A stretch of 64,000 nucleotides of DNA from Rhodothermales bacterium (GTDB taxonomy: Bacteria; Bacteroidota; Rhodothermia; Rhodothermales; Bin80): NCBI GenBank assembly GCA_958296045.1, contig CATQHT010000003.1, positions 1,871,246 through 1,935,245 of the forward strand, in the 5' to 3' direction. Of this stretch, positions 3,127 to 49,471 are shown piece by piece. A program made the position numbers and the translations under genes. The notes under the pieces are model-generated. The model was not told the DNA's origin, searched no databases, and worked only from the letters and a program-made list of their open reading frames with translations. Positions within the stretch are counted from its first letter, which is position 1. Every line of letters starts with the position of its first letter.

Positions 3127-3660
3127 TCAGGCGCGTTGGCCGTGAGGGATAGCATCGGCGTAACAGGCCGTGTCGTTTGGTAGAACGCCAACCATGCACG
3201 CTCTGGACTGCTCAAGGTGCAGCGGCCCCGCACCAAAACGGCTCAGACACACCACACGAGGCAGGCAGGCCTGCCACTGGGCGTCGGACCAGGCCATCCA
3301 GGGCTCGCAGACGGCCAAACGAAGTGCGGCCGCCAACCGCCGCAGCCAGGTAGTCATGCGCGCGACAGATCAGATAGCGTATCTGCGCGCCGAAAAACGT
3401 TGTAGTACCGCACGGATGTTTATGAAGCAAGAGCGTGCTCCAGACTGCGTGCTGCGCGTCGTCGGTCACGTGCCCACGGCCAAGCTCTGCACATCTTGCA
3501 TCCTATCTGAATCCGCGCGCAGCGTGGGCACCGGCGCTGGCAGCAGGCGTGTAACGACACCGGCGGCATACGCGTTCGTCGGCGCTGGCAGCGCCACGAG
3601 TTGTACCACCCAAGATATGCACAGAGGGATCAATGGCTCGACAACCACCTCCGCGCGGCA
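3127..3660 (-). pseudogene. Decayed DruA-like/Tn5-type transposase N-terminus
   Basis: On the minus strand, pieces in two or three frames align in order with residues ~65-200 of the intact transposase at 31846-34158: VALPAPTNAYAA, then DDAQHAVWSTLLLHKHPCGT with FGAQIRYLI, then WMAWSDAQWQACLPRVVCLS. These fall in the DUF4338 (DruA-like) domain. Several frameshifts separate them and no DDE domain follows, so this is a relic. It is much more diverged from the intact copy than a recent duplicate would be. Confidence 0.65.
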
Positions 3661-3711
3661 CTAATCAACTGACATGTGCTCAAATAACCGGATTTCCGAA
3701 TGGGTACTTCG

Positions 3712-3768
3712 TGGCATCAAGTCCCCTCGGGAGTGGTTTGGCAAAAGGTTGCCGCGGCTGGCACGTCC
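3712..3768. repeat. Direct repeat copy 1, flanking small peptide cluster
   Basis: A 57-bp segment made of two exact blocks (TGGCATCAAGTCCCC... and TGCCGCGGCTGGCACGTCC) separated by 17-18 variable bases. A second copy lies at 5747-5802 in the same orientation. This copy sits a few bases beyond the stop codon of the thioredoxin-like gene, the second just before the Cys-rich peptide gene, so the pair brackets the three-gene cluster. Confidence 0.75.
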
Positions 3769-3773
3769 AAGGG

Positions 3774-4355
3774 TCACTGCAGCACCGGTGATCTGAACTC
3801 CGCTCGCTGATCGAACACATGCGTGATGACCTGCGACTCGGCCAAGACCACCTGCGGCGTGCGGATCCCCATGGCCCGCGGGTTGAACTCCGGGTCTTGT
3901 GATACGAGAAAGGGAAAGGTCGCCTGGCTTACGCGCCGCAAGAGCAGCGACTCATAGGCGCCCTGCTCAATTCCCACGAGGGGATCGGCATAGATAGCCA
4001 GCACAGGAAGATCGCGCAGACCAGTCTCCTCGCCCTGCTCCGACCAATAGCGGAGCAGCTTCACCTGGTTGTCCGAGCATCCCACACCCCCCAGCAGTAT
4101 GACTACCGCCGTATCGGGTATGGCCAACCCCAGTTCTGCGGCCGGAGCCTTGGATTGCACTTCGAGGAGCGCCGCTGCGGGGAGCGGCTGCCCCACAAGC
4201 ATTGAATGGTCCGGGACAAGCGCCACGTCACTGACCGGTGGCGCCGGACTGTTGTCGCCCGCAAACCAGAACCGCAGGCCACTGAGCGCAACCAGAGCTG
4301 CCAGAAATGGCACGCCAAACCACATGGTGTACTGCAAACGACTATTCATCCGCAT
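3774..4355 (-). CDS. Membrane-anchored thioredoxin-like protein
   Basis: A 193-residue protein with one N-terminal membrane anchor (about residues 10-31, FGVPFLAALVALSGLRFWF) and a periplasmic domain that looks like a reduced TlpA/redoxin fold: a beta strand TAVVILLGG, then GCSDNQVKLLRYW at the place where thioredoxins carry CXXC, and a later region with TPQVVLAES like the cis-Pro loop. Only one Cys is present, so ordinary disulfide exchange is doubtful; it may be a carrier or scaffold. It overlaps the upstream lipoprotein gene by 14 bases and is the last gene of a three-gene minus-strand operon. The exact function is unknown. Confidence 0.7.
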   Translation of the reverse strand: MRMNSRLQYTMWFGVPFLAALVALSGLRFWFAGDNSPAPPVSDVALVPDHSMLVGQPLPAAALLEVQSKAPAAELGLAIPDTAVVILLGGVGCSDNQVKLLRYWSEQGEETGLRDLPVLAIYADPLVGIEQGAYESLLLRRVSQATFPFLVSQDPEFNPRAMGIRTPQVVLAESQVITHVFDQRAEFRSPVLQ

Positions 4356-5445
4356 CCTGAGGTGGAATAAAGCGGTACCGGAAGATCAAAGGATTGCCTA
4401 CATCACCATCAGCCAATGGCTCATGGTCTCCCTGGCTATAGATGTAACCATTGCCAGCGGCATCAGGCCAGACAGGAGAGATCGTACTGCGAGGGGGAAA
4501 GCGACCGACATTACTGGCAACGCTGATGCCATATTGGCCCCCGGTACCTTCTATCCCCTCCAGCCGCCACCGATCGGCCAGGTGGCTATACACTACCATA
4601 CGAGTCTGACTGGTGAGCGCAAAGACAGCGGAGGTCGTGAGGTACTTGTCGTACTCCGCTCTCATCTCCTCTCGAGACATATGTCGCTGCAAATCCTGTG
4701 GTCGCGGTGAATAAAACTCTGGACGCTGTTGTGCTGCCTTCGCATCGAAGCGCACAGGAATGGCGTCCATGGACTCTAGGTACGTGAAGTACGGTCCATC
4801 ACCAAAACAGTCTATGCTACGGTCCCACATCGCGCTAAAGGGGACGTTTAGCCTGGGGAATTTAGGCCACTCCACAGGGATGTCCCGCAGCACTTGTAGT
4901 TCAGGCGAATACACCACTACGCTATTATGACTTGATGACGAGGTCCAAGGGTTAGGCCAGACAAGAAAGAAGAGGGAATCGCCGCTCGCACAAAATCCCT
5001 TAGCGCGGTGGAGCATCCGCCGGGTGGCGCTAACACAGCGGCCATCTGCGGTGAGAACCACCACCTTGTCCCCAAGGTCCTTCGTAACTACGTGACCCCT
5101 ATCCGCGAAGCGAGCGCTAAAAGGAGTAAGGTCCTCGTCATCGGGCAAACACTCCTGCGGCGAGTAGGTCCTGATATGTTCCCCTGACGACGCAAACAGG
5201 TTAACGCCACCCCCTATGAAATCCGTCACCAAAAGGTCTCCCTCCTGATTGACATCCAGGAACATGATCGCGCCTATGATGATGGACGGATCCAGACGGA
5301 CGGTGTCCGCAGGAGCAAACAGCTCATCAAATGGCAATACCGGTGCGTCTAGGATCTGACTCTCCTGGGGAGCGGCAGTACATCCAACCGAAAGCACAGC
5401 CACCAACAGCCACAGCCTCATAACCACGACATGCTGGTCAGTCAT
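4342..5445 (-). CDS. Six-bladed beta-propeller lipoprotein
   Basis: The 367-residue product begins with a lipoprotein signal (RLWLLVAVLSVGC, lipobox LSVGC at about residues 19-22), so it should be anchored in a membrane facing the periplasm or outside. The body has repeated strand-turn units such as FLDVNQEGDLLVTDF, GHVVTKDLGDKVVVL and TISPVWPDAAGNGYIYS, typical of the 6-bladed NHL/TolB-like propellers common in Bacteroidota. Its ATG overlaps the TGA of the upstream Cys-rich peptide (ATGA) and it overlaps the next gene, which implies translational coupling. In Bacteroidota such propellers are often found next to small secreted peptides; the role is unknown. Confidence 0.75.
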   Translation of the reverse strand: MTDQHVVVMRLWLLVAVLSVGCTAAPQESQILDAPVLPFDELFAPADTVRLDPSIIIGAIMFLDVNQEGDLLVTDFIGGGVNLFASSGEHIRTYSPQECLPDDEDLTPFSARFADRGHVVTKDLGDKVVVLTADGRCVSATRRMLHRAKGFCASGDSLFFLVWPNPWTSSSSHNSVVVYSPELQVLRDIPVEWPKFPRLNVPFSAMWDRSIDCFGDGPYFTYLESMDAIPVRFDAKAAQQRPEFYSPRPQDLQRHMSREEMRAEYDKYLTTSAVFALTSQTRMVVYSHLADRWRLEGIEGTGGQYGISVASNVGRFPPRSTISPVWPDAAGNGYIYSQGDHEPLADGDVGNPLIFRYRFIPPQDADE

Positions 5446-5705
5446 GGGCCGCCATACAGGCAGAACACGTATTCGTTCGCTCCAGGGTCACAGCACTTCT
5501 CGCCAGCCAGCACATGGAACGTAGTGCATGGGCCAAGACAACCCACGACATAGCAGTCTTCACCACACGCATCAAAAGGCAACCTATGCCAAATTAATTG
5601 CGGCACCGTACTGCCCTGCATGTTCTCAGGATGTGGCACGATAAATGCGGACACAAGGACAACACAGACTAGGCCCCCGAGCGCGCACAGGATGCGGGCT
5701 TTCGT
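5442..5705 (-). CDS. Small secreted Cys-rich peptide
   Basis: From about 5705 the frame encodes ~87 residues: a hydrophobic signal segment (ILCALGGLVCVVLVSAF) followed by a short mature region with eight cysteines in ACGEDC, VGCLGPC, EKCC and FC patterns. The organisation resembles the NVEALA-type secreted peptides of Bacteroidota that precede beta-propeller lipoproteins, but the sequence itself is not one I recognise. The frame is open upstream to 5984, yet that part covers the direct repeat at 5747-5802 and has no protein character. The natural first codon seems to be ACG (5703-5705) where ATG is expected, so initiation may be weak or lost. It is coupled to the propeller gene by ATGA. Confidence 0.6.
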   Translation of the reverse strand, partial: TKARILCALGGLVCVVLVSAFIVPHPENMQGSTVPQLIWHRLPFDACGEDCYVVGCLGPCTTFHVLAGEKCCDPGANEYVFCLYGGP

Positions 5706-5746
5706 AGCAGAGATAGCCGGGAGCGAAAGGTTAGGAAAGGTCTTCC

Positions 5747-5802
5747 TGGCATCAAGTCCCCTCGGGACTGGCTGGTAAATGGGTGCCGCGGCTGGCACGT
5801 CC
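5747..5802. repeat. Direct repeat copy 2, flanking small peptide cluster
   Basis: Same two conserved blocks as at 3712-3768, with 16-18 variable bases between them. The block containing CCCCTCGGGA could form a short hairpin. It lies just upstream of the Cys-rich peptide gene. Confidence 0.75.
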
Positions 5803-6237
5803 CGTGGCACGACGCTGTGCGGCGACAGGCACTTCGGCGAAGCTCCCACCGCCTCACCTGTACTGCAAAGCATAGGGTCAGTATATGCAATCTGTGAGCA
5901 AGAATCTCGTACCTCGCTGCCTCGCAGACCTACGCCTGCCCAGTTCCACGTCCGATGACCTGACAACGGTCGGATCCAACGCATCCGTCAGGTATCGCAT
6001 GCCGTCTTGCCTTGTGATGTTCTGACAGGTGAAGCGGCAGTCTTTGGAGCAGGTAGCCTGCTGGATCATGGGGGAGATGGGCAGGCCTACGCAGCGGCCC
6101 TGTTTCTGATGACAGTGTCGCAGCTATCCGTGTCGAGTATGGTCATTTGGTGGCGATCGTGATGCCCGACAATCGGTCCGCACGCCCAGAAGCCTCAGCG
6201 GCCATCAGGCAGATACAGCCGCGCCATAACCAGCGCG

Positions 6238-7014
6238 TCAGGCCAGGTATGGAATCGTCAGCGGCCCCTCGGGCATGATCGCTACACGCGCTTCCCTATC
6301 TCCCAGCCGGAGAAGGTCCCGGTCGATCGCTTCGCGCACCCCACGCGCAGGCTCAATGTGCGCCCGGCGTACCGCCTCGGGGCGCAACGTGCTGAACACC
6401 TGAACGCGGCAGCGCTCCAGAACCTGATTCAAGTTCTGCGTCTGCCACTGGTCCGGTTCGGCAGCCGAATGGCGGATCGCACGCCTACGAGCGGCGGACG
6501 AAGCGTAACGAAACAGCTGCCGCTTGAATGCTCCATGGTCCAGAAACCCATGCGCACACTGGGCAGCAGCCACAATCGGGCCGCCCGGTAAAGTGATCGC
6601 CGCAGCGGCACACATACCCTTGATCCTCTGGTACAGATTCCAATCCAGAGGATATCCGCTGTTGGTCGTCACCACCACCGGAAAGGGCGCCTCCACCGGA
6701 GCCATGGTACGCCGCTAGGTATAGGCACAACCGGCCTGGTGCACCACCCGCACGGCGCCGCAGAAAAACCCCGCAATCGCCTGGTCATCATTCAGCATCA
6801 CGTTGATGAGAACGGCGGCGGGCACCAGTTTACCTCCTGCGCGCACATGCGCCTGCGTCGGGTTGCCTTCCAGGATTCCCCATGTGCTCAGTGGGTGGGC
6901 GACGGTGTCGTATCCATGGTAGCGCAGGATAGCGTCCATGCCCGCAATGCCCGGGAAGACAGCCGTGTAGCCGCCAGAAAAGCCTGCCATAAAGTGTGGC
7001 TTAATGCAGTTCAC
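6238..7014 (-). pseudogene. larA: Nickel-dependent lactate racemase LarA, truncated
   Basis: The frame encodes the central and C-terminal part of LarA (DUF2088 family), which interconverts D- and L-lactate or related 2-hydroxyacids with a nickel-pincer cofactor. Recognisable stretches are KPHFMAGFSGGYTAVFPGIA, HPLSTWGILEGNPTQAHVRA, PVVVTTNSGYPLDWNLYQ and the C-terminal MPEGPLTIPYL. An in-frame TAG at 6715-6717 divides the gene; both halves are in the same frame. The N-terminal ~170 residues are missing because the sequence switches to an IS1634-type transposase fragment at about 7014. No lar maturation genes (larB, larC, larE) are nearby. The gene is certainly inactive. Confidence 0.85.
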
Positions 7015-49339: not shown

Positions 49340-49471
49340 AAATCGACCAGTGGTTCCACGGGAAATCGACCAGTGGTTCCACGGGAAATCGACCAGTGGT
49401 TCCACGGGAAATCGACCACCGATTCCACGGGAAATCGACCAGTGGCTCCACGGGAAATCGACCACCTGAGC
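49340..49471 (+). repeat. IS21 left-end 23-bp tandem repeats
   Basis: Five full 23-bp units of the form AAATCGACCAGTGGTTCC+ACGGG and a partial sixth (AAATCGACCACCTGAGC) run head to tail; unit 4 has ACCGATTCC and unit 5 GTGGCTCC. About three diverged units occur in reverse at the right end (52025-52110). In IS21 elements such arrays are binding sites for the transposase. Confidence 0.85.

What the first reader, a model, noticed from the sequence alone, without database searches (positions are those of the whole stretch)
3712..5802. Three-gene Cys-rich peptide cluster bracketed by direct repeats
A secreted peptide with eight cysteines, a propeller lipoprotein and an anchored single-Cys thioredoxin-like protein overlap one another in an operon, and ~57-bp direct repeats sit exactly at both borders. 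This looks like a compact cassette for making, oxidising or displaying a small disulfide-rich peptide. The role (signal, toxin, bacteriocin-like or surface) is open. The start codon of the peptide seems eroded to ACG.
Basis: partly seen in the sequence, partly recalled or inferred. Interest (0 to 1): 0.55.

Follow-up and report, generated by a model that had tools for sequence, protein, structure and literature searches.

The report
Multi-copy exported cysteine-rich peptide operons
The spot is one partly decayed copy of a three-gene unit (a small exported cysteine-rich peptide, a propeller-shaped lipoprotein and a membrane-tied thioredoxin-like protein) that its bacterium carries many times over, with the peptide's core changing faster than the sequence around it.

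Summary
The cluster is real. The 61/62-nt repeats (3707-3768, 5742-5802; 89% identical) are not cassette borders. Each is the 3' end of a ~185-nt leader that starts a unit; the downstream copy is the stump of a lost tandem neighbour (a true tandem survives elsewhere in the genome). The genome, of the order Rhodothermales, holds six close copies and at least six more peptide-propeller units, some with other cysteine-rich peptides. Across 94 distinct propellers from this genome and relatives, a peptide homologous to one from another locus lies upstream in 38, and in 0 on the reverse strand. The propeller models as an NHL-type propeller closest to Bacteroides proteins (4raa, 3s9j); the third protein has a TlpA/ResA-like thioredoxin fold. 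A Bacteroides-like genome shows the same layout: 6 of 6 NVEALA peptides are followed by a propeller lipoprotein. The peptide core is locally hypervariable in two unrelated unit classes while the signal segment is conserved, and one core was recently exchanged between copies. The window's own peptide is probably dead (AGG at the start position, one conserved cysteine lost). Most likely role: export, disulfide handling and surface binding or display of a variable peptide. The biochemistry is untested.

The parts
5740..5925 (-). Leader in front of the unit, shared with seven other full-leader loci of the genome; its last part is the upstream direct repeat
   Evidence: 221-nt query, 11 places at E up to 4e-5 in the own genome; alignment
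5742..5802 (-). Upstream direct repeat: 3' end of the leader, ending at the peptide start-codon position
5442..5747 (-). Peptide frame with hydrophobic signal segment and Cys-rich core; codon at 5747-5745 reads AGG where siblings have a start codon; probably a dead copy
5442..5642 (-). Peptide core with its stop codon; about 5515-5595 is the hypervariable part between copies
4342..5445 (-). NHL-type beta-propeller with lipoprotein-like signal (LSVGC)
   Evidence: open frame; profile to TRIM2 NHL 4.1e-10; model pLDDT 87.8, nearest 4raa 4.9e-10
3774..4355 (-). Membrane-anchored thioredoxin-fold protein with one conserved Cys (GCSxNQ)
   Evidence: alignment A4; model and fold searches
3707..3768 (-). 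Downstream direct repeat: start of a lost next tandem unit, broken at the start-codon position
   Evidence: same junction as in tandem L020 and stump L019

Best explanation
The block is one copy of a multi-copy, fast-evolving three-gene unit of this Rhodothermales lineage. Shown: a common leader precedes units; each full unit encodes a short peptide with a hydrophobic signal segment and a Cys-rich core, an NHL-type propeller with a lipoprotein signal and a membrane-anchored thioredoxin-fold protein; copies arise by tandem and dispersed duplication; the core is locally hypervariable and one core was exchanged between copies; the window copy has a broken peptide. Inferred: the leader co-expresses the units; the peptide leaves by the Sec route and is cut at a V-x-A site; the thioredoxin-fold partner oxidises, isomerises or holds its cysteines; the propeller binds the folded peptide and carries or displays it on the outer envelope. 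The direct repeats are unit starts, not recombination sites.
For: Cys-rich open segments upstream of 41 of 92 propellers, 5 of 92 on the reverse strand, thioredoxin-like gene downstream of 28 of 87; peptide homologous to another locus upstream of 38 of 94, reverse strand 0 of 94. Folds. Same layout with NVEALA peptides in G314, 6 of 6 followed by a propeller, one array with signal peptidase I and a CxxC thioredoxin-like lipoprotein. Some unit classes of the own genome have CxxC in the thioredoxin-fold partner. Hypervariable core in two unrelated classes. Trx-like plus NHL propeller precedent NHLRC2 (PMC6107167, passages).
Against: No binding, export or redox activity is shown. 40 of 85 propellers with full flanks have neither partner and 17 have a peptide candidate but no detected thioredoxin-like gene. 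In the window class the thioredoxin-fold partner has one Cys only, so it cannot be a classical CxxC oxidoreductase. Five of the six close copies, the window's included, have a broken or unusual peptide start or frame.
Confidence: 0.5

Rival explanations
1. Bacteriocin-like system: the peptide is released to act on neighbouring bacteria, the propeller lipoprotein is the immunity protein, and orphan propellers are kept as protection against other strains' peptides.
For: Hypervariable core; propeller open in 8 of 8 leader-marked units while the peptide is intact in 2 of 8; 48 of 85 propellers with full flanks have no Cys-rich segment upstream.
Against: No toxin-family match and no PADLOC match; no dedicated exporter next to the units; a thioredoxin-fold partner is not a usual part of such systems (recalled).
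Confidence: 0.2
2. Redox or metal unit: the Cys-rich peptide is a metal or electron carrier and the partner is a ResA/CcmG/Sco-like assembly protein.
For: Nearest folds of the partner include CcmG, ResA, TlpA and Sco1; one peptide (L018) has a CxxCH motif.
Against: A metal or haem site should not be hypervariable between neighbouring copies; CxxCH was seen in one peptide only; Haem_bd is far below cut-off (E 0.058).
Confidence: 0.13
3. Mobile cassette: the repeats are recombination sites and the block moves as a unit.
For: Direct repeats at both ends and dispersed copies; transposase genes near several copies.
Against: Downstream repeat at 2 of 6 close copies only as a stump, and as a true next unit in one; 3' ends differ between copies; the leader also stands before other genes.
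Confidence: 0.04
4. Decaying duplication debris: the window block has no present function.
For: AGG at the start position, one core Cys lost, 5 nonsynonymous to 1 synonymous change against L020A in the core.
Against: Propeller and thioredoxin-like frames are open, and propeller dN/dS against the other copies is 0.38-0.55; the family is kept across genera.
Confidence: 0.13

Closest known systems
Bacteroides NVEALA peptides (PF14055) with DUF4221, DUF5128 or TolB_like propeller lipoproteins
   Same: Short exported peptide directly followed by a propeller lipoprotein, in arrays; in one array a thioredoxin-like lipoprotein follows. Nearest solved structures of the window propeller are 4raa, matched by a DUF5128 partner, and 3s9j, a DUF4221 protein.
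   Different: No PF14055 match in the own genome; more cysteines; homology of the thioredoxin-like proteins and of one propeller pair not shown; no signal peptidase gene seen in the units read.
NHLRC2 and its bacterial homologues
   Same: A thioredoxin-like domain paired with an NHL propeller, with an unusual active site (PMC6107167, passages).
   Different: There fused in one protein; here separate genes, with a peptide gene in front.
TlpA/ResA/CcmG-type anchored thioredoxins
   Same: Fold and N-terminal membrane anchor.
   Different: Window class keeps only one Cys (GCSxNQ); no Pfam match.
Conotoxin-like precursor families (recalled)
   Same: Conserved signal region, hypervariable mature part, conserved cysteines.
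   Different: Pattern only; no sequence relation claimed or tested.

Membership tests
NVEALA peptide family (PF14055) | Match to the PF14055 model above its cut-off | tested here: not met
   Own genome no match at E 0.01; six intact peptides of own genome and relatives no NVEALA match at E 1
NVEALA peptide family (PF14055) | Directly followed by a propeller lipoprotein gene (layout seen in G314) | tested here: met
DUF5128 propellers (PF17170) | Match above the gathering score | tested here: not met
   Window propeller 0 Pfam families; 9 of 12 other hits in the own genome are above cut-off
NHL-type beta-propeller | Sequence profile and fold | tested here: met
   TRIM2 NHL 4.1e-10; model pLDDT 87.8, Foldseek 4raa and NHL propellers
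NHL-type beta-propeller | Exactly six blades | tested here: inconclusive
   Blades were not counted on the model
Thioredoxin fold | Fold | tested here: met
   Foldseek FetE 1.7e-5; VIA-align best Z 9.3, rmsd 3.7, 129 aligned
TlpA/ResA thiol-disulfide oxidoreductases | CxxC active site | tested here: not met
   Window class has one Cys, invariant in 16 of 16 rows of A4; other classes of the genome have CxxC
TlpA/ResA thiol-disulfide oxidoreductases | Thiol-disulfide exchange activity | not testable with these tools
   needs an assay
NHLRC2 family | Thioredoxin-like and NHL domains in one protein | tested here: not met
   separate genes
Repeat-bounded mobile cassette | Same site on both sides of copies, fixed ends | tested here: not met

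The most novel reading that the evidence does not exclude
Bacteroidota carry a widespread, undescribed class of peptide display or signalling units (exported Cys-rich peptide, propeller carrier or receptor, thioredoxin-fold partner), of which Bacteroides NVEALA clusters are one branch. In this lineage the peptide cores form a repertoire diversified by recombination between leader-linked copies, with start-less copies serving as silent donors, in the manner of antigenic variation.
Probability: 0.2. Interest if true: 0.85.

Novelty: new variant of a known kind. Interest (0 to 1): 0.6.

Why it matters
NVEALA peptides and their partner propellers are database families without a stated function; the held library has no paper with the word NVEALA, and no listed title concerns the pairing. 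A second, distant lineage with the same layout, more cysteines and a thioredoxin-fold partner makes one question testable: does the propeller bind its own peptide, and does the thioredoxin-fold protein act on its cysteines? A repertoire of hypervariable disulfide-rich peptides in one bacterial genome would also be a new source of small folded scaffolds. If it serves contact with a host (that several related assemblies come from sponges is recalled, not from a call), it would be a new layer of symbiosis.

Tried and rejected
Mobile cassette with repeat borders: rejected on the copy structure. Structured RNA in the leader: no Rfam match up to E 5 in window 3500-6200; folding z-scores -0.26 to -2.33 in six copies, so no structure claim. 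Recoded stop codons in the peptide: in-frame stops in signal segments are TAA, TAG and TGA in different copies, so decay, not recoding. Viral origin: the thioredoxin-like profile finds no relative in viral contigs. Defence system: no PADLOC match for four proteins. Homology of the Bacteroides thioredoxin-like protein and of one partner propeller to ours: hhalign probability 5.7 and 0.1, so not claimed. Thioredoxin-like profile A4 in 296 phylum genomes: 6 with a match, all of the own family, own genome included, so the window-class partner is narrow. Leader in other genomes of the family: matches of 20-32 nt only, in 3 of 15. PDB by sequence for A4: none. Papers: searches gave nothing on topic (86 was swamped by unrelated matches).

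Counting notes. The 94 propellers are what is left of 121 open-frame hits after dropping frames under 300 aa and identical copies. The Cys-rich segments include noise (for example L017, L161, L163); the homology count is cleaner. The 39 regions hit include one (L043) that matches only itself, hence 38. Breaks in peptides: the excess in start or signal segments over cores is suggestive only, since fragments with a broken core are harder to detect. The p of 5e-4 (breaks in peptides against propellers) rests on my own count of five independent breaks and on uniform chance per base; I do not lean on it. One search stopped on an internal stop codon in L022 and was replaced, which skips such codons.

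Full report
What was checked. The window lies in a 4.78-Mb, four-contig genome. Relatives found with the thioredoxin-like profile are 17 loci in assemblies titled Rhodothermales, Rhodothermaceae, Bacteroidota or Bacteroidetes; that several of these are sponge samples is recalled, not from a call.

The repeats. A 76-nt query around the downstream repeat has 10 matches in the genome. Aligned copies show that the repeat is the last part of a longer conserved leader that ends at the peptide start codon. A 221-nt leader query gives 11 places at E up to 4e-5: upstream leaders of the window, L019, L020A, L022 and L023; two before the divergent units L024 and L079/L217; one before the gene of a 2065-aa protein (L021/L218) with a T9SS-type sorting domain (Por_Secre_tail 1.6e-8); and three short ones just behind a thioredoxin stop. 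One of these three starts a real second unit (L020B); the other two (window 3707-3768 and L019) break off at about the start-codon position. So the repeats are unit starts in an eroded tandem array. Other genomes of the family show only 20-32 nt matches, in 3 of 15, so the leader belongs to this genome's lineage.

Copies. Six close units exist: window, L019, L020A, L020B, L022, L023; the five other propellers are 68-87% identical to the window's. L023 is a recent duplicate of L020A (98.6% over 2086 nt). Transposase genes stand near several units. Peptide frames: L020B intact from ATG; window AGG at the start position; L019 ATT at the start position; L020A and L023 an early in-frame stop; L022 a frameshift and a stop. 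Further units with other peptides are L018, L024, L202, L210, L213 and L217; L015, L203 and L206 have a propeller and a thioredoxin-like gene without a clear peptide of this kind.

Recurrence. The propeller has matches in 14 of 15 other genomes of the family and 6 of 83 in the rest of the order. From these and the own genome I took 94 distinct propellers of at least 300 aa. Cys-rich open segments upstream: 41 of 92; reverse-strand control 5 of 92; downstream control 7 of 87. Thioredoxin-like gene downstream: 28 of 87. With both flanks at hand: both partners 20, peptide only 17, thioredoxin-like only 8, neither 40 of 85. By homology, 38 of 94 upstream regions match a peptide of another locus at E 0.01, and 0 of 94 do so on the reverse strand. 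The class-1 peptide has a hydrophobic segment, often a V/I-x-A site, four spaced cysteines, a CC pair and a final C-x-x-C.

Folds. The propeller model has pLDDT 87.8; nearest solved structures are 4raa (Bacteroides fragilis BF0058, 4.9e-10), Brat NHL and 3s9j (a DUF4221 protein); a sequence profile finds TRIM2 NHL at 4.1e-10. The third protein has a thioredoxin fold: pLDDT 77.2, FetE 1.7e-5, CcmG, ResA, TlpA and peroxiredoxins, VIA-align best Z 9.3, rmsd 3.7 over 129 residues. Its single Cys is invariant in 16 of 16 rows. Other unit classes of the same genome have CxxC in the partner (L024, L210, L217), which supports a thiol role for the position.

Same layout elsewhere. PF14055 NVEALA is over its cut-off in 1 of 296 phylum genomes (G314, six copies) and, among 14 control genomes, in Bacteroides ihuae. 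In G314 all six are directly followed by a propeller lipoprotein, and all six of these match DUF4221, DUF5128 or TolB_like above cut-off. One array continues with a signal peptidase I (1.8e-29) and a CxxC thioredoxin-like lipoprotein. A DUF5128 partner matches 4raa at 2.7e-5. Sequence homology of that thioredoxin-like protein, and of one partner propeller, to the window's is not shown. So the Rhodothermales unit looks like an NVEALA unit in layout but is not a member by the PF14055 test.

How the peptide evolves. Between L020A and L020B the signal segment differs at 4 of 105 sites, the core at 45 of 198, the propeller at 108 of 1095. One 80-nt tile in the core differs at 29-31 of 77 sites in four of five pairs tested, against 10-13% elsewhere (p 1e-8 to 5e-10; the tile was picked from the 27 tiles); in the fifth pair (window/L020A) it differs at 1 of 77. 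The unrelated pair L210/L213, with two peptide genes, repeats the pattern: cores 24 of 168 and 23 of 141, propeller 61 of 1188, p 5e-5 and 6e-6. Between window and L020A the core region is nearly identical (8 of 306) while the rest differs at 143 of 1328, p 1e-6: a recent exchange. dN/dS is 0.56-0.94 in cores of diverged copies and 0.38-0.55 in propellers. dS is raised in cores too, so recombination of old alleles is as good a reading as positive selection.

What stays, what breaks. Among the 8 leader-marked units (window, L019, L020A, L020B, L022, L023, L024, L217) the propeller is open in 8, the peptide intact in 2 (L020B, L024) and the thioredoxin-like gene full length in 4 (window, L020A, L024, L217). 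Breaks seen in peptides fall in the start, in the signal segment or at its junction with the core; no stop was seen inside an alignable Cys core. This fits a propeller with a role beyond its own peptide, such as receptor or immunity.

Mechanism. Most likely the units export, fold and bind or display variable disulfide-rich peptides. Shown: gene order, folds, recurrence, hypervariable core, one core exchange. Inferred: Sec export and V-x-A cleavage, action of the thioredoxin-fold partner on the peptide, binding by the propeller, co-regulation by the leader. Pairing of a thioredoxin-like domain with an NHL propeller has a precedent in NHLRC2, where the two domains form a cleft and the thioredoxin-like domain showed no activity in an insulin assay (PMC6107167, passages).

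Literature. NVEALA: 0 papers. Six names of propeller and peptide families: 74 papers hold at least one, 25 listed, none on the pairing by title; PMC10434189 lists BT0664, a 6-bladed propeller, in its B. thetaiotaomicron iron-stimulon section (one passage). Combined terms: 7 papers. These are held open-licence papers only.

Noticed in passing
L218:33-6230 (G000:C3, about 2493932-2500129): The same leader and first codons stand before a gene for a 2065-aa protein with DUF4397 and a T9SS-type sorting domain, as if the leader drives a set of envelope genes.
   Followed up: partly
window 5740-5925 and aligned copies (A2): The leader holds a palindrome-like element (about TGTAC-N6-GTACA) upstream, and a GTGCCAGCCGCGGCAA stretch that resembles the universal 530-loop sequence of 16S rRNA (the rRNA sequence is recalled); a possible regulator site, not tested.
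   Followed up: no
L022 6612-6656 and L023 reverse complement 6890-6933: Two copies that are only 87% identical are cut off within 3 nt of each other in the thioredoxin-like gene.
   Followed up: no
L171/L172 (G314:C2): NVEALA array with signal peptidase I, thioredoxin-like lipoprotein and a transglutaminase-like protein nearby.
   Followed up: partly
L208 reverse complement 34-1053 (G000:C3 near 1222k): An open frame of many near-identical repeats (LGDMSAHELLVLAQNGVDPEQVRAFQAAG) lies just upstream of a DUF5128 propeller gene.
   Followed up: no
window 49340-49464: Tandem array of a 23-nt unit, 5.4 copies.
   Followed up: no
peptide genes upstream of propellers in own genome and relatives: Breaks cluster in start or signal segments while Cys cores stay open; silent donors or detection bias, not resolved.
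   Followed up: partly
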